NCBI GenBank assembly: GCA_016871595.1
Contig: VHCY01000014.1
Location: forward strand, 1 to 35,414
DNA from: Verrucomicrobiota bacterium
GTDB lineage: Bacteria; Verrucomicrobiota; Verrucomicrobiia; Opitutales; Opitutaceae
Direction of reading: 5' to 3'
Length of the DNA stretch: 35,414 nucleotides
In this document: positions 5,711 through 20,829 of the stretch, piece after piece
How positions within the stretch are numbered: position 1 is the first letter of the stretch
Layout: every line of letters begins with the position of its first letter
Made by a program: the position numbers and the translations under genes
Notes under the pieces: generated by a model
The model's database searches: none
The model's input: the letters and a program-made list of their open reading frames with translations, nothing else
Told to the model about the DNA's origin: nothing

Positions 5711-7282
5711 ATGAAGACCCCGCCCCGCCTGCTGCTGCTCCTCGCATTCCTGGCCGTCGTCGCCCGCGGTGCCGAGCGCCCGAACGTGGTGCTCATCCTG
5801 TTGGATGACCTCGGCTACGGCGACGTCTCCGCGAACCACCCGGCCGGGCGCATCCGCACGCCGCAGATGGACCGCATCGCGCGCGAGGGGGTGCGCTTCA
5901 CCGACGCCCACACGCCGTCCTCGGTCTGCACGCCCACGCGCTACGGCCTCCTCACGGGCCGCTACAACTGGCGCACGCGCCTGCAGCAGGGCGTCCTCGG
6001 CGGCCTTTCCCCGCGCCTGATCGAGCCGGGCCGCGACACCCTCGCTTCCTTCCTTCGCCGCGCCGGCTACCGCACGACCACGGTCGGCAAGTGGCACCTG
6101 GGGATGGATTGGGCGAAGCTGCCCGGCAAGGACGTCAACCCGCTTGGCATCGAATCCGCGGCGCAGGCGTGGAGCGTCGACTACGCGCGGCCGATCGCCA
6201 ACGGCCCGCTGAGCGTGGGCTTCGACCGTTACTTCGGCATCGCGGCCTCGCTGGATATGGTCCCGTACACCTTCATCGAGAACGACCGCGTGACCGTGCT
6301 CCCGACCCTTGAGCGCACGTGGCCGCTGCATCCGGGGCATCCCGGCGAGTGCCGGACGGGGCCGGCCGCGCCGGGCTTCGAGGTCGAGCACGTGCTCCCG
6401 GAGTTCACGCGCCAGGCGGTGGCGACGATCGAGGCCGGCGCCGCCGCAGGAAAGCCGTTCTTCCTCTACCTCCCGCTGGCCTCGCCTCACACCCCGATCG
6501 CGCCCAACCCGCCGTGGAAGGGACGAAGCGGGCTGAACCTCTACGCGGACTTCGTGCTGGAGACCGACGACGCGATCGGGCGCGTGCTGGACGCCCTCGA
6601 CCGGACCGGCACCGCCGCCAACACGCTGCTCATCCTGACGAGCGACAACGGCTGCTCGCCGCAGGCGCGGATCGAGGAGCTCGCCGCCCAGGGCCACGCG
6701 GTGAACGGGCCCCTACGGGGCCACAAGGCCGACCTGTTCGACGGCGGGCACCGCGTGCCGTTTCTTGTGCGCTGGCCCGCGCGGGTGCGGCCGGCGGTGA
6801 GCGACCAGCTGGTCTGCCTCACCGATGTGTTCGCCACCTGCGCGGAGATCCTGGGCGTCCGGCTGCCGGATGAGGCGGGGGAGGACAGCTTCAGCTTCCT
6901 GCCGGTCCTCGAGGGCCGGGGACCCTCGGCCCGCGAGTCCGTGGTGCACCACTCGATCACCGGCGCGTTCGCGATCCGGCGCGGGCCGTGGAAGCTGGCG
7001 TTGAGCCCCGGCAGCGGCGGCTGGTCCGCGCCGCGGGATCCGGAGGCCCGGCAGCAGGGGCTGCCCGAGACGCAGCTGTACCGGATCGGCGGGGACGACC
7101 TGGCTGAACGCGAGAACCTGGCGGCGCGTCACCCCGAGATCGTGGCCGAATTGGAGCAGACGTTGCAGCGGCTGGTGTACCAGGGGCGAAGCACCCCGGG
7201 CCGGCCGCAGGCCAACGCGGTGCCCGTTGTGCTGCGCAAACCGATCCCCGCCTCGGCGGCGAAGGCGAAAGGCAAGTCCTGA
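5711..7282 (+). CDS. Exported S1-family sulfatase (Cys type)
   Basis: A 523-residue sulfatase with a cleavable signal peptide (residues 1-21, ending ARGAE). Metal-binding Asp32-Asp33 lie in LILLDDLGYGD. The maturation motif is Cys73-Thr-Pro-Thr-Arg77, so Cys73 would become formylglycine. VGKWHLG (125-131) supplies the usual Lys127 and His129, and LTSDNG (309-314) supplies Asp312-Asn313. It removes sulfate esters from carbohydrate or aromatic substrates in the periplasm or outside the cell. It lies 64 bp behind the heparinase-like lyase on the same strand, so a joint role on a sulfated polysaccharide is likely but inferred. The C-terminus ends in a short Lys/Ala-rich tail (SAAKAKGKS). Confidence 0.93.
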   Translation: MKTPPRLLLLLAFLAVVARGAERPNVVLILLDDLGYGDVSANHPAGRIRTPQMDRIAREGVRFTDAHTPSSVCTPTRYGLLTGRYNWRTRLQQGVLGGLSPRLIEPGRDTLASFLRRAGYRTTTVGKWHLGMDWAKLPGKDVNPLGIESAAQAWSVDYARPIANGPLSVGFDRYFGIAASLDMVPYTFIENDRVTVLPTLERTWPLHPGHPGECRTGPAAPGFEVEHVLPEFTRQAVATIEAGAAAGKPFFLYLPLASPHTPIAPNPPWKGRSGLNLYADFVLETDDAIGRVLDALDRTGTAANTLLILTSDNGCSPQARIEELAAQGHAVNGPLRGHKADLFDGGHRVPFLVRWPARVRPAVSDQLVCLTDVFATCAEILGVRLPDEAGEDSFSFLPVLEGRGPSARESVVHHSITGAFAIRRGPWKLALSPGSGGWSAPRDPEARQQGLPETQLYRIGGDDLAERENLAARHPEIVAELEQTLQRLVYQGRSTPGRPQANAVPVVLRKPIPASAAKAKGKS

Positions 7283-7313: not shown

Positions 7314-7567
7314 TCACGCGGGGGGTGGCGGGGAGGTGCGCACCTGGAGGCAGCAGGAGTGATAGCGTGCGAGGTACTCGAGCTCCGCGTCGCTCAGACC
7401 GTGGATCCAGCGCCGGCGGAAGTCCTCGCCTTCCGGCCGCAGCCCGTGGGGGGGCAGAAGGGCGGGTTGCCGTGGTCCACGGGACACCCGCGCGTCAGCT
7501 CGAAGACCTGGCGTTCCAGCCAACCCCGGCGGTCGTACTCGGGAAAGGGTTTCAGCGGCGTGGACAT
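7314..7567 (-). pseudogene. Small Cys-containing protein of unknown function, apparently frameshifted in a C7 run
   Basis: From the ATG at 7567 the minus strand reads a sensible N-terminus (MSTPLKPFPEYDRRGWLERQ, then RGCPVDHGNPPFCPP). At a run of seven Cs on the coding strand (about 7448-7454) the frame changes. The other frame continues sensibly as HGLRPEGEDFRRRWIHGL and SDAELEYLARYHSCCLQ to the stop at 7314. One extra C would join both halves into an 84-residue protein with a CP...C...CC pattern. As given, the first frame ends in about 13 unrelated residues. Upstream of the run, the second frame is only Arg/Ala/Gly-rich filler. This is either a real frameshift or a sequencing/assembly error. 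I do not recognise the family. Confidence 0.6.
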
Positions 7568-7737
7568 CTCCGGAAGCGGCGCGGGCCACCCGGCCGGCGC
7601 GCAAGGGAAGGGATCATACTCCGGGGTCCGCCGCCACGCGCCGGCTGGGAATCCGGATTGGTGTTTTCCGTCCGCGGCGGTCGGACAATCCGCTCGCCAG
7701 CGTCGGGCGGGCGGCTTTCGCTGCGGACAGTCGTCCC

Positions 7738-9402
7738 ATGTCGCGCCTGCACGCCGATTCCTTCCTCGCCGGCCATCCGGGCCGGGGCGCGGCCCGCCGG
7801 GGCCTGCGGGCGGCGCTGCTTGTGCTGGTGCTGGCGCTGCCGGCCGCGGCGGCGGAGACGACCCTGACCTTCGCGGGGGTCGCCCTCGACGCCGAGACGG
7901 CGCGGGCGGATGAACGGCTCCGGGAATACCTGCGGTCGCGCGACGGGTTCCGCTTCGAACCCCGCGACCTCGACCACGGTGCCGCGGTGGATCTCCTCGT
8001 GGCGTGGGATGCGCGGCGGCAGGGCCCGCTCTTGGCGCGGGTCACCCCCTTCGTCTACCTCGCCGCGGAGATGCTGGGCGCGAACCTCGACGTCGTGGCC
8101 ATCGCGGTGAGCCCGCGCGTGCCGGACACCACGCGGCTGAGCCACCTTGTCGTGCGGCGAGGGTCGGGCGTGCGGACGGCGGACCCGGACGCGTTGTTGC
8201 GCTGGTTGCGGGAGCGGACCGAGCCGGCGCGGTTCGTCTATCCCGACAAATTCAGCACCTCGGGCTACGGGTTGCCGGCGGCGTTTTTCCGGCGCGCCGG
8301 GGTGTTCACGGGCTCGGGACCCAACGGGCCGGACCAGCGGCACACCTTCATCCGGGCGGAGCAGCCCCCGGGCGGGCGCGGCGCGGCCGAGCTGGTCGGG
8401 CTCGTCCGCGAGGGCCGGGCGGAGCTCGCGGGGGTGTGGGACGGCGTGCGCGCGCGCTTCGCGGACGATCCGGACCTGCTCTTCATCCCGCTGCCTTTTC
8501 CCGCCCCGAACGACCTGCTGGTGCTTTCCTCCGGCGCGGACCGCGGCGTGCGGGAACGGGTGACCGCCGGCGTCCGCGCGATGCGGGCCGGGGAGATCGG
8601 CGTGGGGGACACCCTGCGCTGGCAGGATTTCAACGCGGCGCCCGAGGCCCGGCGGGCGTTGGCGACCCTGCGCCGCCAGACGCGGGGTGGACCACCCGCG
8701 GTGCCGATCAAGATCCGTGGGCCCGCCGGCGGGGACGCGCCGCCCGATCCGGCCCTGCTGGAGGCGGCGCGGCAGGCGGTGCTGCTCGCGGGCACCGAGT
8801 TCACCCTCTACGACGAGGACTTCCACAAGCATTTCGACGTCCTCTGGACCCTGCGCCGCGCGCACGACGACGCGGTTGTGCTGACCAGCGAGTACCCCGA
8901 CTTCGGCCTGCCGCCGCAGGAGTTCCACCTGAGCCACCGGCGCGACGATCCGGAGAGCCTCGTGGGCCGGTTGGAGGATTGCCTCTCGAACCGGATGCAC
9001 CGCCTGCGCGAGGTGTGGAGCTTCGACGACCGCACGCCGACCGTCCTGCGCGACGTGCGCTTCGCGCTGCCGGCGGGAACGCGTTTGCCGGCCGTGCGCG
9101 TGGTGTGGAACGACCCCGCGAACAATGACCGCGCGGTGGGCTCGCCGTTCGTCGCGGAGGTCGCCGCGGGCGATTTCCACGCCTTCCGCCTGAAGCCCGA
9201 CGGGTTTCCCCGGCGGGGTGACGGGGCGCGCCTCGACCTCGATCCGCTCGGCAGCACGTCCTACCGGGTCGCCCTGGTGCGGCCGGTGGCGGACACCTTC
9301 CTGTTCCGGCTGGGGACCTCGCTGGTGCTCGTGCTCGCGGTGCTGGCGGCCGTGCTGGCGCTGTGGACCCTGGTGCGGCGTCCGGGCGGGCCGCCGCGAT
9401 GA
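7738..9402 (+). CDS. PhnD-like periplasmic solute-binding protein with extra domain and C-terminal membrane anchor
   Basis: The 554-residue protein has a signal peptide at about 22-39. A PhnD-like (phosphate/phosphonate type) type-2 binding domain covers about 41-315. It contains RVTPFVYLAAEMLGANLDVV (101-120), KFSTSGYGLPAAFF (171-184) and a PNGPDQRHTFIRAEQ segment (195-209). Residues about 335-515 form a second extracytoplasmic region I do not recognise (HKHFDVLWTLRRAHDD, then WNDPANNDRAVGSPF). One transmembrane helix (about 524-545) precedes a short basic cytoplasmic tail (RRPGGPPR). No ABC permease or ATPase for phosphonate uptake is adjacent, so a ligand sensor is more likely than a transporter part. 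The stop overlaps the start of the PAP2-TIR gene by ATGA, so the two are probably co-translated. Confidence 0.75.
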   Translation: MSRLHADSFLAGHPGRGAARRGLRAALLVLVLALPAAAAETTLTFAGVALDAETARADERLREYLRSRDGFRFEPRDLDHGAAVDLLVAWDARRQGPLLARVTPFVYLAAEMLGANLDVVAIAVSPRVPDTTRLSHLVVRRGSGVRTADPDALLRWLRERTEPARFVYPDKFSTSGYGLPAAFFRRAGVFTGSGPNGPDQRHTFIRAEQPPGGRGAAELVGLVREGRAELAGVWDGVRARFADDPDLLFIPLPFPAPNDLLVLSSGADRGVRERVTAGVRAMRAGEIGVGDTLRWQDFNAAPEARRALATLRRQTRGGPPAVPIKIRGPAGGDAPPDPALLEAARQAVLLAGTEFTLYDEDFHKHFDVLWTLRRAHDDAVVLTSEYPDFGLPPQEFHLSHRRDDPESLVGRLEDCLSNRMHRLREVWSFDDRTPTVLRDVRFALPAGTRLPAVRVVWNDPANNDRAVGSPFVAEVAAGDFHAFRLKPDGFPRRGDGARLDLDPLGSTSYRVALVRPVADTFLFRLGTSLVLVLAVLAAVLALWTLVRRPGGPPR

Positions 9403-10640
9403 GGGGGCCGCGCGAACTCCTGCGGACGCGGGAAGGCCTGCTGCTGCTGCCGCTGGCGGTCGCGGTGGCGGCGCTGGCCCAGGCGCAGGCCGAGGCGGCG
9501 CGCTGGAGTCCCGAAACCTACGCGCTGGGTCACCGGGTGGCCCAGGCCCTGCAGGAACTGGAGGGCGGGCTCGATTTCAGCGGGGCGGAGGCGGTGCCCG
9601 GCTGGATGGTGGCGGCGGTGACGGGCGCCTATTACCTGCTCCAACCCGCGCTGCTCGCCGGGGCCCTCGTGGTCTGGTTCCGGGCGCCGACGGCGCGGCC
9701 GCTGCGGTTGTTGGTCGGCTCGCTCGTGGCGGCCTACGCCCTTGCGCTCCCTTTCCACCTCCTGCTGCCGGTCCCGGAGCGGTGGGCCTTTCCCGGGTCG
9801 GGGGCGATGCTGCTCTCGGATCGGCTCGGGGAAGGCTGGATCCGCGCGGCGCGGCTCTGGAGCAGCCCCGATGACGGGTTCCCCAGCCTCCACGCGGCGC
9901 TGGCCGCCGTGGTGGTGATCGTGGCCTACGCGGTGCGGGCGCGCGGGCGCCACGTGGTGCTCTGCCTCGCGCTGCTGGCCGGCGTTTCCTCCTTTTTTCT
10001 CGGCCTCACCTGGTTGCCCGGTCTCGTGATGGGCGTGGCGGTGGCGGGCCTCGCCTTCGCCCTCGCGACGCGCTGGAGCCGCGCGTGGTATCCCGAGGAA
10101 TGGCCCGCGCCCCGGGCTTCCGTCGCGGCGGCCGAACCCCAGCCGGCCGGGCCAGGGCCGCACTGGACTGACACCGCGTTCCCCTTCCTGCGGCCGGGCC
10201 GGCAGCGGCGGGTCTTCATCAGCTACCGCCGCGACGGCGCCTCCGACCTCGCGCGCTTGGTGCGGATGGAACTCGAGCGGCGGGGCTACCCCTGTTTCCT
10301 CGACGTGGACGACGTCGGTGCCGGGCGGTTCGACGCGCGCCTGCTCCGCGAGATCGAGGCGGCGCCGAACTTCGTGCTGGTGCTCGCCGCGGGTTCCCTC
10401 GACCGGTGCCGGGAGCCGGACGACTGGCTGCGGCGCGAGATTGCCCACGCCGTGCGGCACGGGCGTCGCATCGTGCCGCTGGTGGCGGAGGGGTTCCAGT
10501 TTCCCGCGGACGCGGACTTCCCGCCCGAGGTGGCGCGGCTCGCCGGCCTCAACGCGGTCGTGTACTCGCACGCCTACTTCGGGCCGTCCTTCGACCGCCT
10601 CGAGGAATTCCTGCGCGCGCCGCCGCCGGGCGGGGCCTGA
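9399..10640 (+). CDS. PAP2-like six-helix membrane protein fused to a C-terminal TIR domain
   Basis: A 413-residue protein. The ATG at 9399 overlaps the upstream stop. Residues 12-224 hold about six hydrophobic helices with a PAP2-superfamily PSLHAALA block (162-169). The third PAP2 motif, normally with catalytic His and an Asp, reads GLTWLPGLVMG (202-212) and lacks both, so phosphatase activity is doubtful. A Pro/Ala-rich linker (235-265) leads to a TIR domain at about 270-405. It includes RRVFISYRRDG (270-280), PCFLDVDDVGAG (298-309), NFVLVLAAGSLDRC (324-337) and DDWLRREIAHA (341-351). Glu347, in a WxxxE setting, is the likely catalytic Glu of an NAD-cleaving TIR; activity is inferred. Inner-membrane placement with a cytoplasmic TIR fits. 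Signalling or defence is possible; neither is shown. Confidence 0.8.
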   Translation: MRGPRELLRTREGLLLLPLAVAVAALAQAQAEAARWSPETYALGHRVAQALQELEGGLDFSGAEAVPGWMVAAVTGAYYLLQPALLAGALVVWFRAPTARPLRLLVGSLVAAYALALPFHLLLPVPERWAFPGSGAMLLSDRLGEGWIRAARLWSSPDDGFPSLHAALAAVVVIVAYAVRARGRHVVLCLALLAGVSSFFLGLTWLPGLVMGVAVAGLAFALATRWSRAWYPEEWPAPRASVAAAEPQPAGPGPHWTDTAFPFLRPGRQRRVFISYRRDGASDLARLVRMELERRGYPCFLDVDDVGAGRFDARLLREIEAAPNFVLVLAAGSLDRCREPDDWLRREIAHAVRHGRRIVPLVAEGFQFPADADFPPEVARLAGLNAVVYSHAYFGPSFDRLEEFLRAPPPGGA

Positions 10641-15775: not shown

Positions 15776-17926
15776 ATGCGCCTGCACCCCCTCCTGCCCG
15801 TTTTGGCCGGGCTGGCCTGCGCCGGGCCCCTCCACGGGCTTGGCCTCGTCTCCACCTCGCCCGGACCGGGCGCTCCCGCCGACACGCTGCTCCGGTTCAC
15901 GTGCGCGAGCGAGCCGCGGCTCGGCCCCGCCGGCCGGATCCGCATCACGAGCCTCGGGTCGGGCGCGGTGGTGGAGACCATCGACCTTGCGGAGGCCGCC
16001 CCGACCCGACTCGTGGGCCTCAACCCGACGCCGTACCGCTACCGGCCCGTGCGGGTCGAGGGCCGCGTCGCGGTGGTGCACCCGCGGGCGGGCGTGCTCG
16101 CGGCGGGCGGGGCCTACCGGGTCGATTGGGACGCGGGGGTGCTCACGGATGCTTCCGGATCCCCCCTTGCCGCCGGGAGCTTTAGCTTCAGCGTCCGCCC
16201 CGAACGGCCGGCCGCGACCGCGGTGGCGGTCACCGTGGCCGCCGATGGCTCCGGCGATTTCGCGACCGTGCAGGGCGCGATCGGCTGGGTGCCGGCGGGC
16301 AACACCGTCCCGCGGGTGATCTCCATCCGCGCCGGCGTCTACGAGGAACTGGTCTACCTCGGCTCGCGGCAGCCCTTCGTAACCCTGAGGGGCGAGGACC
16401 GGGCGGGCACCGTCATCACCTACGCGAACAATCAGAACCTGAATCCGGGCAACAACCGCGCGATGGTCGCGATCGACGCGGCCGACGTGACGCTGGCCCA
16501 CCTGAGCCTGCGCAACACGACGCCGCGCGGCGGGAGCCAGGCGGAGGCCCTGCGCGGCAACGGGCGCCGGGTCGTGCTCGACCGCGTGACGCTGAGCAGC
16601 CTGCAGGACACGCTGCTCTGGAACGGCTCGCTGTTCGTCACGGACAGCCTGATCGAGGGCGACGTGGACTTTATGTGGGGCGGGGGCGCGTGCTACTTCC
16701 AGCGGTGCGAGCTGCGGTCCCTTGGCGCCGGCTACCTCGCGCAGGTGCGCAACGGTGAGACGGGGCGCGGTCACGTGTACGTGGACTGCCGCCTGACTGC
16801 GGCGCCGGGCGTGGGCAACGTCTACCTCGCGCGGATCGATCCGCGGCCGGACGTCGCCAACACGTGGCCGTTCAGCGAGGTGGTATTCCTCGGGTGCGCG
16901 ATCGGGCCGCACGTGCGACCGGAGGGCTGGCTGCTGAACAACGCGACCGCCGCGCCGCAGGTGCGCTTCGGGGAGTTCGGCAGCACCGATTTGTCCGGCG
17001 GCCCCCTCGACCTGTCGCGCCGGCTGCCGGATTCCCGGCGCATCGACCGGGAGACGGCCGAGCGCTACCGCGACCCCGCGTTCGTGCTCGGCTGGTCCCC
17101 GCCTGCGCCGGTGACGCCTCCGCCCCGCCGCGAGCGCCTGACGGGGCTCTCGACCCGGGCCCGCGCTGGAGCGGAGCCGGTGATTGTGGGGTTTGTCCTC
17201 GCCGGCGCCGCGGAGGCCGCGGTCCTGATGCGCGGGGCCGGTCCGGCGCTTGGCGCTTTCGGCGTATCCGAGGTGCTGCCGCGGCCGCGGCTGGTGCTGC
17301 AGCGGGACGGGACCGTCCTGGCGGCGCAGGTGGGCGGTCCTTTGCCCGAACCTGTGGCCTCCGCGGCGGCGCGCCTCGGACTTTTTCCATTTCGGTCGGG
17401 GGCGGCGGACACGGCGCTGCTCGCGACCCTGCGGCCGGGCGCGTACACCGTGGCGCTCGCGGACGCCGGCGGGGCCGAGGGCAACGGCCTGGTGGAAATT
17501 TACGACGCCACGCCGGGCGAGGGTTCTCGCCGGCTGGCCAATCTCTCCTCGCGCGCACTGGTCGGCGAGGGCGATGCGACGCTCATCTCCGGCCTGACCG
17601 TCGCGGGTTCCGCGCCGAAGCCGGTGCTCGTGCGGGGCATCGGGCCGGCGCTCACGGCCTTCGGGGTCGAGGGTGCGCTGGCCCGGCCGCGCCTCACGGT
17701 TTACCGGGGAACGGAGGCGCTGGCGGTCAACGCGGGCTGGACCGCCGCGGACAACCCGCTGGAGATCGCGCGGGCGGGTGCGGGGGTGGGGGCATTCCCG
17801 CTGGCGACGGGCAGCGCGGACACGGCGCTGCTGCTGGAGCTGGCGCCCGGCAATTACACCGCGCAGGTGAGCGGGCCACCCGGGAGCGGGGGCGTCGCGC
17901 TGCTCGAGGTTTACGAGGTGCCCTGA
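15776..17926 (+). CDS. Secreted pectinesterase (CE8) with tandem C-terminal Verrucomicrobia-type repeat module
   Basis: A 716-residue exported enzyme with a signal peptide at 1-22. Residues 25-142 form an Ig-like module of SbsA type (TLLRFTCASEPRLGPAGRI). A pectin methylesterase beta-helix follows at about 150-440, from VTVAADGSGDFATVQGAIG (152-170). The catalytic residues are Gln277-Asp278 (SLQDTL), nucleophile Asp298 (DVDFMWG) and Arg353 (YLAR). It would remove methyl esters from homogalacturonan. Two related modules of about 125 residues follow (453-577 and 587-714). Each runs from an LSxRAxxG start through LxRGxGPALxAFGV to DTALLxxLxPGxYT and an E(I/V)Y ending. They may serve binding or surface display. 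The ATG at 15776 is the first start giving a signal peptide. Confidence 0.92.
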   Translation: MRLHPLLPVLAGLACAGPLHGLGLVSTSPGPGAPADTLLRFTCASEPRLGPAGRIRITSLGSGAVVETIDLAEAAPTRLVGLNPTPYRYRPVRVEGRVAVVHPRAGVLAAGGAYRVDWDAGVLTDASGSPLAAGSFSFSVRPERPAATAVAVTVAADGSGDFATVQGAIGWVPAGNTVPRVISIRAGVYEELVYLGSRQPFVTLRGEDRAGTVITYANNQNLNPGNNRAMVAIDAADVTLAHLSLRNTTPRGGSQAEALRGNGRRVVLDRVTLSSLQDTLLWNGSLFVTDSLIEGDVDFMWGGGACYFQRCELRSLGAGYLAQVRNGETGRGHVYVDCRLTAAPGVGNVYLARIDPRPDVANTWPFSEVVFLGCAIGPHVRPEGWLLNNATAAPQVRFGEFGSTDLSGGPLDLSRRLPDSRRIDRETAERYRDPAFVLGWSPPAPVTPPPRRERLTGLSTRARAGAEPVIVGFVLAGAAEAAVLMRGAGPALGAFGVSEVLPRPRLVLQRDGTVLAAQVGGPLPEPVASAAARLGLFPFRSGAADTALLATLRPGAYTVALADAGGAEGNGLVEIYDATPGEGSRRLANLSSRALVGEGDATLISGLTVAGSAPKPVLVRGIGPALTAFGVEGALARPRLTVYRGTEALAVNAGWTAADNPLEIARAGAGVGAFPLATGSADTALLLELAPGNYTAQVSGPPGSGGVALLEVYEVP

Positions 17927-17941
17927 CGCGCCGTGGCCGGC

Positions 17942-18751
17942 TCAGCGGTTGTCGCCGTCAAGCGCGCGGCCCAGCCCGCCGAGGACGGAGCCCTCCTCGC
18001 GGCCCCCGCGGGCGGCGTTGACGATGCGGCCGGCGAGGCGCGACAGCGGGAGCGACTGGAGCCAGACCCGGCCGGGACCGCGAAGGGTGGCGAAGAAAAG
18101 GCCCTCGCCGCCGAAAAGGGCCGTCTTGATGCCCCCGACGAGCTGGATGTCGTAGCTCACGCTGGGCTGGAAGGCGACGATGCAGCCCGTGTCGACGCGG
18201 AGCATCTCCCCCGGGCCGAGGGTGCGCTCGTGCAGGGCGCCGCCCGCGTGGATGAAGGCCCAGCCGTCGCCGGTCAGGCGCTGGAGGATGAAGCCCTCGC
18301 CGCCGAACAGGCCGGCGCCGAGGCGCTTCTGGAAGGCGATCCCGAGGCTCACCCCGCGCGCGGCGCACAGGAACGAGTCCTTCTGCGCGAGCAACTCGCC
18401 GCCGATGCTCGCGAGCGGCACGGGAATGATCCGACCCGGGTAGGGCGCCCCGAAGGCGACCTTGCGGCGGCCGGCCCCCTGGTTCTGGAAGACCGTCATA
18501 AACAGCGACTCCCCGGTGAGGAGACGCTTTCCGGCCCCGAGCAGCGAACCGAGCAGCCCGCCCGGGCGCGCGGAGCCGTCGCCGAAGATCGTCTCCATCG
18601 CGATGCCATCCTCCATATACATCATCCCGCCGGCCTCGGCCACGACGGCCTCGCGCGGGTCGAGCTCGATCTCGACGAACTGCAGGTCATCCCCGCGGAT
18701 CACGTAGTCGATCGCGTGCATCTGCGGCGTGAGGAAAGGAGGGGAGTCCAT
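17942..18751 (-). CDS. AIM24/TIGR00266 family protein
   Basis: A 269-residue protein with no signal peptide or obvious membrane helix. It shows the repeated Gly-rich beta-strand pattern of the AIM24/TIGR00266 family: [16 protein letters not shown] (40-55), [20 protein letters not shown] at about 150-169 and [20 protein letters not shown] near the C-terminus. The family fold is a tryptophan-RNA-binding attenuator-like beta structure; its biochemical role in bacteria is not settled. The gene lies 56 bp downstream of the copper ATPase on the same strand. It could be the last gene of that operon or a separate unit. The 3' end faces the pectinesterase gene across 15 bp. Confidence 0.85.
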
Positions 18752-18807
18752 AGGGGTGGTCGGGCGGGAGAACCCCGCGCGCGGCCAAAAGTTGCGGGGC
18801 GGGCCGC

Positions 18808-20829
18808 TCAGTCAATCCGCAGGTGACGAAGCCGGAGCGCGTTGGCCACGACGGTGATCGAGCTCAGGCTCATCGCGACGCTCGCGACCATCGGGTGCAG
18901 CAGCCAGCCCGTCCACGGGTAGAGGATTCCGGCGGCGAGGGGCAGGCCGGCGAAATTGTACGCGAACGCCCAGAAGAGGTTCTGGCGGATGTTGCGGAGG
19001 GTTGCCCGGCTCAGGCGTGCGGCGCGGACGAGCCCCGCCAGGTCGCCGCGCAGCAGCACCACGCCGGCGCTGCGCAGCGCGACGTCGGTGCCGTCCCCCA
19101 TCGCGATCCCGACATCCGCGGCGGCGAGGGCGGGCGCGTCGTTGAGGCCGTCGCCCGCGAACGCCACCCGCTCCCCGCGGGCCCGCCGCGCGCGCACGAG
19201 GTCCTGCTTGCCCGCGGGGGAAACGGCGGCGTGCCAGGCGTCGAGGCCGAGGGCCGACGCGACCGGGGCGGCCGCCTCCGCCCGGTCCCCGGTGACCAGC
19301 TCGACCCGCCAGCCCAGCGCGCGCAGGGCGCGCACCGCGGGCGCGGCGGAAGGCTTCAACTCGTCCGCGAGGGCGATGCACCCGGCAAGCGCGCCCTCGA
19401 CGCGCACCTCCACCAAGGTGGCCCCGGCTGCCTCGGGCGGGAGGGCCGGGACGGGGCCGGTCAAGCGGGAGACGTTAACCTTCCGGCCGGAGACGAGGGC
19501 CGAAACCCCGACGCCCGGCTCCGCCCGGAAATCCTCCGCGGGCGGCAACGCGAGTCCGCGTTCCGCGGCCGCGGCGACGAGCGCTCGCGCCAAGGGATGC
19601 TCGCTGGGCGCCTCGGCCGCCGCCGCGAGCCGCAGCAATTCCGCGGGCAAAGTCCCGGAATCCGCCGGGAGCACGGCGGTCACGCGGGGCCGGCCGGTGG
19701 TGAGGGTGCCCGTCTTGTCGAGCAGGAGCACGGTGGTGCCGGCGAGGTGCTCCAGTGCGGCCGCATCCTGCACCAGGATGCCCGCGCGGGCCCCCCGGCC
19801 GATGCCCGTGACGATCGAGACGGGGGTCGCCAGCCCGAGCGCGCACGGGCAGGCGATGATCAGCACCGCGACCCCGTTGAGCAGCGCGAGCGGCGCGCGC
19901 GGCGCCGGGCCGAAGGCGAGCCAGGCGGCCGAGGTGGCCAGCGCCAGGGCCAGCACCGCGGGGATGAACCAGGCGGTGACGCGGTCGGCGAGCCGGGCGA
20001 TGGGCGCCTCGCTCTCCTGCGCGGCGGTCACGAGCCGGATGATGTGTGCGAGGACGGTATCCGCACCGACCCGTTCCGCGGTGAGCAGCAGCGAGCCGGT
20101 CGTGTTGAGCGTGCCGGCGCGGACCAGGTCCCCGGCCCGGCGGGGCACGGGCAGCGGCTCGCCCGTGAGCATCGACTCGTCGACGTCGCTCGCGCCCGAG
20201 GCGACGCGGCCGTCGACCGGGAGATGCTCGCCCGGCCGGACGCGCAGGAGATCCCCGGGACGCACCGTGGCGAGGGGGAGGTCCTCCTCGCGTCCGTCGG
20301 TGGCGACGCGGTGGGCGATGGGCGGGGCGAGGCGGAGCAGCGCCTCAAGGGCCTCGCCGGTGCGGGCGTGGGCGCGTTGCTCGAGGATTTGCCCAAGCAG
20401 GACGACGGTCGTGATGAATGCCACCGCCTCGAAGTAAAGCGGCGGCCCGTGCGCGGTCTGGAGGGCGGCGGGAAAACTTTCCCCGACGAGCGTCGCGGCC
20501 ACGCTGTAGAGGTAGGCGGCGCCGGTCCCCGTGACCGTCATCGTGAACATATTCGGGTCGCGCTCGCGGATCGAGCGCCACCAGCGGCGGTTGAGCGGCG
20601 CGCCGGCCCAGAGGAAGACCGGCGTGGTGAGCGCCAGCTGGACCCACGCGAGGAAGCCGGGATCGAGGCCGTGCACCAGCCCGGGCGCGACCATCCCGCC
20701 CATCGCCAGCACCAGCACGGGCATCCCGAGGCCGAGCGCGACCCAGAGCCGCGGGCGCAGGTGGCGCTCGTGGGGCAGGCCCATATGGACGGGCTCGGTG
20801 GGGGAGGGAATGGCGGTCACGGGAATCAT
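18808..20829 (-). CDS. copA: P1B-1 type Cu(I)-translocating P-type ATPase without N-terminal metal-binding domain
   Basis: A 673-residue ATPase that exports Cu(I) (and probably Ag(I)) from the cytoplasm. Actuator TGE is at 222-224, the membrane CPC motif at 327-329 and the phosphorylated Asp371 in DKTGTLT. SEHPL (409-413) and GDGLND (559-564) follow. The C-terminal helices carry YN (624-625) and MSLSS (653-657), the copper-selective P1B-1 signature. The protein begins almost directly at the first helix: only about 25 residues precede it (with HMGLPHERH), and no CxxC HMA or YHS domain is attached. A separate YHS-type protein is encoded upstream in the operon. Met16 (20784) is an alternative start. 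The start is 13 bp downstream of the CusA-like gene. Confidence 0.93.

What the first reader, a model, noticed from the sequence alone, without database searches (positions are those of the whole stretch)
7738..10640. Two-gene PhnD-like sensor plus PAP2-TIR membrane effector: candidate undescribed system
Seen: an anchored PhnD-like binding protein and a PAP2-like/TIR fusion share an ATGA overlap and stand alone, without ABC permease or ATPase genes. Known: bacterial TIR domains often cleave NAD and act in antiphage or other signalling systems (for example Thoeris), usually with a separate sensor. Inference: an outside ligand (phosphonate, lipid head group or envelope damage product) is sensed by the binding protein and passed through the membrane part to a cytoplasmic TIR. 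I know of no described system with this pair of architectures.
Basis: partly seen in the sequence, partly recalled or inferred. Interest (0 to 1): 0.82.

Follow-up and report, generated by a model that had tools for sequence, protein, structure and literature searches.

The report
Envelope-facing receptor with SARM1-type TIR effector
A rare two-gene module in Opitutaceae-related bacteria appears to join an outward-facing phosphate-type binding protein to a membrane protein whose inner end is an enzyme domain very like the NAD-destroying one that kills injured nerve cells in animals, which suggests an undescribed outside-to-inside alarm switch.

Summary
7738-9402 encodes a secreted, C-terminally anchored protein with a diverged PhnD-like half and a conserved second half of no known family. 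9399-10640 (ATGA overlap) encodes a six-helix PAP2-like membrane part fused to a TIR domain. The pair is a real unit: both genes are in the same 7 of 250 sampled family genomes, and no intact copy of either was found alone. Both are under purifying selection; one close relative carries a deletion scar. New here: the TIR is SARM1-class (E 1e-34; the 23 best structural hits; catalytic Glu kept), not Thoeris-like; and the PAP2 active site is degenerate in the window's clade but intact in the two distant copies. Related TIRs in the phylum also sit behind membrane segments, one on a CHASE2 sensor. Most likely an envelope receptor that switches on a cytoplasmic NADase. NAD cleavage is likely (about 0.8), outside-in gating plausible (about 0.5), phage defence unproven. 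Ligand and complex are unknown; structure models were poor. New variant of a known kind.

The parts
7738..9402 (+). Gene 1: secreted/anchored PhnD-like binding protein, 554 aa
7810..7866 (+). N-terminal hydrophobic segment (signal peptide or anchor, residues 25-43)
   Evidence: hydropathy
7855..8682 (+). PhnD-like domain, residues about 40-315 (Pfam match 99-298)
   Evidence: PF12974, 6 of 6 copies; 52-55% identity to distant copies
8254..8262 (+). Ser-Thr-Ser motif S173-T174-S175, invariant in six copies, aligned with the S-A/T-S-G loop of three ordinary PhnD-type proteins
   Evidence: role of the loop in PhnD and AioX from PMC5908839 passages
8695..9312 (+). Second periplasmic part of no known family, residues about 320-525, the better conserved half (63-64% to distant copies)
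9319..9375 (+). C-terminal transmembrane anchor, residues 528-546
   Evidence: hydropathy 2.0-2.8 in 6 of 6 copies
9399..9402 (+). ATGA stop/start overlap, kept in 7 of 7 copies
9399..10640 (+). Gene 2: six-helix PAP2-like protein fused to TIR, 413 aa
9435..10082 (+). PAP2-like membrane region, residues about 13-228
   Evidence: six hydrophobic segments in 7 of 7 copies; PAP2 and PAP2_3 in 7 of 7
9882..9893 (+). PAP2 motif C2, PSLH, kept
9987..10022 (+). PAP2 motif C3, degenerate here: His replaced by Thr204 and Asp by Gly208; intact in L008 and L009
10203..10616 (+). SARM1-class TIR domain, residues about 269-406
10437..10439 (+). Putative catalytic glutamate E347 (aligned with SARM1 E642)

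Best explanation
A two-gene inner-membrane receptor and effector. Gene 1 is a periplasmic binding protein, held by a C-terminal helix, that binds a phosphate-type headgroup or oxyanion. Gene 2 sits beside it through a PAP2-type six-helix bundle whose old active site faces the periplasm; in this clade the bundle no longer catalyses and serves as a lipid- or partner-binding transducer. When the periplasmic part signals (ligand gained or lost, or envelope damage), the cytoplasmic SARM1-class TIR domains are brought together and cleave NAD+, lowering NAD or making an ADP-ribose signal, which stops growth. Shown: co-occurrence, overlap, selection, domain make-up, TIR class and conserved Glu, loss of PAP2 catalytic residues. 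Inferred: topology (hydropathy and charge only), physical contact, ligand, NAD cleavage, direction of gating, biological use.
For: Co-occurrence: gene 1 in 7 of 250 family genomes, in one of them (G577) as two contig-end pieces; gene 2 over its length in the same 7; adjacent with ATGA overlap. L008 and L009 share only the pair with each other among the genes called in the 17-kb loci. Purifying selection in the close clade: named domains dN/dS 0.03-0.12, the degenerate PAP2 part included at 0.06-0.12. TIR: SARM1 at E 1e-34, 123 bits, against 23 bits for the next TIR; 23 of 23 Foldseek hits at E <= 0.001 are SARM1 or TIR-1. Glu in 7 of 7 copies. Hydropathy and charge: six helices, TIR inside; gene 1 outside with anchor. 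Precedents: AioX, a PhnD-fold protein, is thought to act on a histidine kinase (PMC5908839, passages). In the same family G630 has CHASE2 (E 9e-28), membrane segments and a SARM1-class TIR (E 1e-23) in one protein. Of the six strongest TIR-only relatives (L011-L014, L065, L066), five have membrane segments.
Against: No complex model; AlphaFold models are poor (pLDDT 41 and 51) and the gene 1 model is unusable. The PhnD-like half is diverged: 20-24% identity of the window copy to ordinary PhnD-type proteins, with an insertion near where PhnD has its pocket His, and no PDB hit by profile; a phosphate ligand is a guess. SARM1's Glu599 is Gly and Trp662 is Phe/Tyr here, so activity or product could differ. 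Only seven copies are known, five of them close relatives; L008 against L009 gives dN/dS 0.32 and 0.27. The module is rare (gene 1 in 1 of 387 phylum genomes, the window's own) and dispensable (deleted in G594). One of the six TIR-only relatives, L013, shows no membrane segment. No ligand, expression or phage data.
Confidence: 0.55

Rival explanations
1. Anti-phage abortive-infection module: the same receptor design, with the trigger being phage adsorption or lysis-stage envelope damage (a special case of the best explanation, so the odds overlap).
For: TIR NADases act in phage defence (PMC13142454, passages); patchy presence (6 of the 25 same-genus genomes listed) and loss by deletion in G594 would suit a costly accessory system.
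Against: No defence neighbours among 9 window and 9 L008/L009 genes read with Pfam and 10 of these scanned with PADLOC, except a Cache-HAMP-cyclase near L009 that matches Pycsar cyclase models; no plasmid match for gene 1 and none in viral contigs; synteny in the close clade and a partly shared position even in L009 point to vertical descent. Patchiness alone does not show defence.
Confidence: 0.3
2. Nutrient or lipid-cycle sensor: gene 1 reports a phosphate-type or lipid-carrier headgroup and the TIR makes a small ADP-ribose signal that adjusts metabolism rather than killing.
For: PhnD-like Ser-Thr-Ser loop kept; the two distant copies keep an intact PAP2 C3 motif, suggesting an original link to lipid phosphates; housekeeping surroundings.
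Against: No phosphonate or phosphate genes adjoin it in the genes read. Whether any SARM1-class TIR has a metabolic role was not searched in the literature.
Confidence: 0.25
3. Gene 1 is an inhibitor (antitoxin-like lock) of a constitutively toxic PAP2-TIR, rather than a ligand sensor.
For: Pairing in 7 of 7 genomes; the second part is better conserved than the binding domain.
Against: The PhnD-like loop is kept, which a pure inhibitor would not need; inference only.
Confidence: 0.2
4. The TIR is only a scaffold and the pair is a PAP2-type lipid enzyme with an accessory binding protein.
For: Many animal TIRs are thought to be scaffolds (PMC13142454, passages); L008 and L009 keep the PAP2 residues.
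Against: PAP2 C3 His and Asp are lost in 5 of 7 copies while the TIR stays the most conserved part (66-71% against 43-49%) with its Glu intact in 7 of 7.
Confidence: 0.07

Closest known systems
SARM1 / TIR-1 (animal NAD+ hydrolases)
   Same: TIR domain, 34-38% identical over TIR-length Foldseek alignments, with Glu642 and several neighbouring residues kept
   Different: SARM1 is a soluble ARM-SAM-TIR octamer (recalled); here the TIR hangs on a membrane bundle with a separate periplasmic partner
AioX/ArxX/ArrX PhnD-fold sensors with AioS kinase
   Same: PhnD-fold periplasmic protein used for signalling rather than transport (PMC5908839, passages)
   Different: Partner there is a histidine kinase; here PAP2-TIR. 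Gene 1 carries an extra unknown part and a membrane anchor
CHASE2-TM-TIR protein of G630 (L066)
   Same: Same family of bacteria, SARM1-class TIR behind a sensor domain
   Different: One protein, CHASE2 sensor, no PAP2
Thoeris ThsB and other phage-defence TIRs
   Same: TIR fold; weak hits to ThsB, SAVED-TIR and ThcB4 models
   Different: No ThsA-like partner among the neighbours scanned; far below the ThcB4 cut-off (39.8 against 220 bits)
EACC1 membrane-associated two-gene conflict systems (PMC7159879, section 33 read)
   Same: Two genes at the membrane; some with a periplasmic-binding domain
   Different: EACC1 and caspase components as described there; none of these was seen here

Membership tests
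SARM1-class TIR NADase domain | Closer to SARM1 than to other TIR groups | tested here: met
   123 bits against 23 bits for the next TIR in the PDB; Foldseek top 23. No tree was built, and only TIRs with solved structures were compared.
SARM1-class TIR NADase domain | Catalytic glutamate (E642 in SARM1) | tested here: met
   E347 aligned; DWLRRE in 7 of 7 copies
SARM1-class TIR NADase domain | NAD+ cleavage | not testable with these tools
   needs enzyme assay
PhnD phosphonate-binding protein of an ABC importer | Adjacent ABC ATPase and permease | tested here: not met
   none adjoining in the window, L008 or L009; L034 and L035, ordinary PhnD-type proteins, do sit next to an ABC ATPase gene by reading
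PhnD phosphonate-binding protein of an ABC importer | PhnD-like domain and oxyanion loop | tested here: inconclusive
   PF12974 in 6 of 6 and Ser-Thr-Ser aligned, but no PDB hit by profile, E 0.12 in NCBIfam and no usable structure model
Active PAP2 lipid phosphatase | C3 motif S-x6-H-x3-D (motif recalled) | tested here: not met
   absent in 5 of 7 copies including the window's; present in L008 and L009
Thoeris | ThsB-type TIR together with a ThsA-type effector gene (recalled) | tested here: not met
   no such neighbour among the genes scanned
Anti-phage defence system | Protection against phage | not testable with these tools
   needs phage assay

The most novel reading that the evidence does not exclude
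A bacterial outside-in death receptor: a PhnD-type periplasmic sensor and a catalytically dead PAP2 lipid-binding bundle jointly gate a cytoplasmic SARM1-class NADase, one example of a wider and undescribed set of envelope-facing SARM1-type TIR receptors in Verrucomicrobiota (with the CHASE2-TIR and TIR-TM-periplasmic forms), analogous in layout to Toll-like receptors but enzymatic.
Probability: 0.35. Interest if true: 0.85.

Novelty: new variant of a known kind. Interest (0 to 1): 0.62.

Why it matters
SARM1's TIR is thought to have come from bacteria by horizontal transfer (PMC13142454, passages). Here SARM1-class TIRs sit behind envelope-facing proteins, giving a testable ancestral logic: outside signal, membrane, NAD loss. 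If true it would also add a sensor type (PhnD fold) and a transducer (pseudo-PAP2) to TIR effectors; I found neither described in the capped listings (12 of 82 papers shown; one paper each; none; one).

Tried and rejected
Phosphonate import: rejected, no ABC partner and diverged pocket. Thoeris membership: rejected. Active PAP2 phosphatase as the function: rejected for this clade. Recent mobile insertion: no GC difference (pair 0.745-0.747, window 0.744), G594 keeps remnants of both edges, and L009's pair lies about 7 kb from counterparts of the window's esterase and ABC genes in the same order and orientation, so old residence with loss fits better. Link to the neighbouring heparinase and sulfatase: rejected, L006 has no sulfatase match and L007 has no heparinase match and only a 53-residue sulfatase end. 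AlphaFold models too weak for the membrane part and for gene 1; the gene 1 model was not sent to fold search. Domain 2 alone found nothing outside the window's genome in 335 class genomes. Genome searches score only a few candidates per genome, so distant relatives may be missed. The scan for promoters gave none and the one terminator-like site is below chance expectation. The phages collection was not searched; plasmids were searched with gene 1 only. One search printed wrong frames for the minus-strand hits (L015-L017, L019, L022, L024, L026); those rows were dropped, and L019 and L022 were re-read. One search used the epimerase in a wrong frame by mistake; it still located the homologous place in G594, which searches checked in the right frame. 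One search read only the window because of a file-name error and was redone. One search (SARM1 residue search) found no paper.
Full report
What is there. Two overlapping genes stand at 7738-9402 and 9399-10640. Gene 1 has an N-terminal hydrophobic segment, a PhnD-like domain (PF12974, 6 of 6 homologues), a second part matching no Pfam family, and a C-terminal membrane helix (weaker hydrophobic stretches also lie inside the PhnD-like domain). Gene 2 has six hydrophobic segments with PAP2 similarity (7 of 7) followed by a TIR domain.

Is it a unit. A genome-contig scan with gene 2 gave six loci, by record titles from Opitutia, Opitutaceae and Verrucomicrobia MAGs. Five hold both genes complete; L005, cut by its contig end, holds the last 289 residues of gene 1 and all of gene 2. 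All keep the ATGA overlap. Among 250 sampled genomes of the family, gene 1 was in 7, in G577 as two contig-end pieces; the two further, weak hits of that search (L034, L035) are ordinary PhnD-type proteins beside an ABC ATPase gene by reading. Gene 2 over its length was in the same 7. In 387 phylum genomes gene 1 was found only in the window's genome. The draws were samples and the first-pass filter is coarse.

Context. Among genes called by a crude script in the 17-kb loci, L008 and L009 share only the pair with each other; with the window, L008 also shares a sulfatase (76%) in another place and orientation. A wider stretch of L009's contig (L057) shows counterparts of the window's esterase (62%), ABC ATPase (78%) and permease (55% over 174 residues) about 7 kb beyond the pair, in the window's order and orientation. 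So L008 is in an unrelated context, while L009 seems to keep an old shared position with other genes between. In the close clade the neighbours are syntenic. Close relative G594 (six flanking genes 94-97% identical) lacks the pair, heparinase and sulfatase but keeps a piece around the heparinase start and about 107 bases of the TIR end, with a stop: a deletion. The pair is thus old in this clade and dispensable. Neighbours are housekeeping, carbohydrate or transport genes (9 window genes; 9 genes of L008 and L009). PADLOC on 8 of the latter and 2 window genes gave only Pycsar-cyclase matches to a Cache-HAMP-cyclase near L009. Plasmids (gene 1 only) and viral contigs (both genes) gave nothing.

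Selection. Window against L004, L006 and L007: whole-gene dN/dS 0.10-0.13 (gene 1) and 0.08-0.09 (gene 2); TIR 0.03-0.11; PAP2 0.06-0.12; linker 0.08-0.18. L008 against L009: 0.32 and 0.27 with dS about 0.8. Against the two distant copies the TIR is 66-71% identical, the second part of gene 1 63-64%, the PhnD-like domain 52-55% and the PAP2 part 43-49%.

The TIR. The profile of seven copies hits SARM1 at E 1e-34; the next TIR, a TIR-STING, is at 3e-4. Foldseek with the modest model (TIR blocks of pLDDT 54-78) gives SARM1 or TIR-1 for 23 of 23 hits at E <= 0.001; EcThsB2 is at E 0.18. Numbering is fixed by PDB titles (G601P, H685A, E642A): Y568-R569-R570, D594, W638, E642 and H685 correspond to Y276-R277-R278, D302, W343, E347 and H391, all invariant in the seven copies. 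E599 is Gly and W662 is Phe or Tyr. That E599, W638 and W662 belong to the active site is recalled, not read. That a catalytic glutamate is needed by SARM1's TIR, with E642A as the mutant used: PMC11025887, passages.

The PAP2 part. Motif C2 (PSxH) is kept in 7 of 7 copies. Motif C3 is S-x6-H-x3-D in L008 and L009 and in the PAP2 relatives L019 and L022, but has Thr and Gly in place of His and Asp in the five copies of the window's clade. Motif names and roles are recalled. Purifying selection on a degenerate site argues for a structural or binding role.

The binding domain. The window copy aligns at 20-24% with three ordinary PhnD-type proteins; its Ser-Thr-Ser falls on their S-A/T-S-G loop. 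In PhnD and AioX residues of this loop contact the ligand (PMC5908839, passages). An insertion falls near where the pocket His should lie. The profile itself finds no PhnD in the PDB; an ordinary relative, L035, does.

Wider pattern. The six strongest TIR-only relatives outside the pair (E below 1e-20; L011-L014, L065 and L066) comprise five with membrane segments and one without, L013, read to its locus end. Three were tested against the PDB and hit SARM1 or TIR-1 best: L011 (1e-31), L014 (4e-18) and L066 (1e-23); L012, L013 and L065 were not tested. L066 carries CHASE2, called a small-molecule receptor domain in PMC8195603 (passage).

Literature. Listings for TIR with PAP2, PhnD, substrate-binding protein, Verrucomicrobia or CHASE2 showed no title or abstract start describing this pair. 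Passages of PMC11722364 (its 'PaP2' is a phage name), PMC10158934 and PMC8195603 were unrelated or general; PMC7159879 section 33 describes a different membrane two-gene system. The library lacks most subscription papers.

Judgement. A real, conserved, two-gene membrane module with a SARM1-class output. Outside-in signalling is the most economical reading; phage defence is one option among several.

Noticed in passing
window 7314-7568, - strand: Small ORF of about 84-93 aa, conserved beside the pair in L004, L006 and L007, is frameshifted in the window, apparently at a run of C: decay or an assembly error.
   Followed up: partly
L066 (G630:C10:195110-198514): CHASE2 sensor, membrane segments and SARM1-class TIR in one protein.
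   Followed up: partly
L011, L012, L014, L065: TIR at the N-terminus, then membrane segment(s), then an apparently periplasmic region (weak PDZ match at the end of L014).
   Followed up: partly
L020 (G337:C4) and L019 (G187:C15): PAP2-like membrane part followed by what reads like a dual-specificity phosphatase domain; not tested.
   Followed up: no
L055 (G594:C6:20000-38000), about 6130-6530: Deletion scar holding a piece around the heparinase start and the end of the TIR gene.
   Followed up: yes
L057 (G550:C8:40001-60000), 17485-19999: Counterparts of the window's esterase and ABC genes about 7 kb beyond the pair, same order and orientation: an old shared position.
   Followed up: partly
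L009 12857-14719, - strand: Cache-HAMP-adenylate/guanylate cyclase near the pair, with no counterpart found in the other loci called.
   Followed up: no
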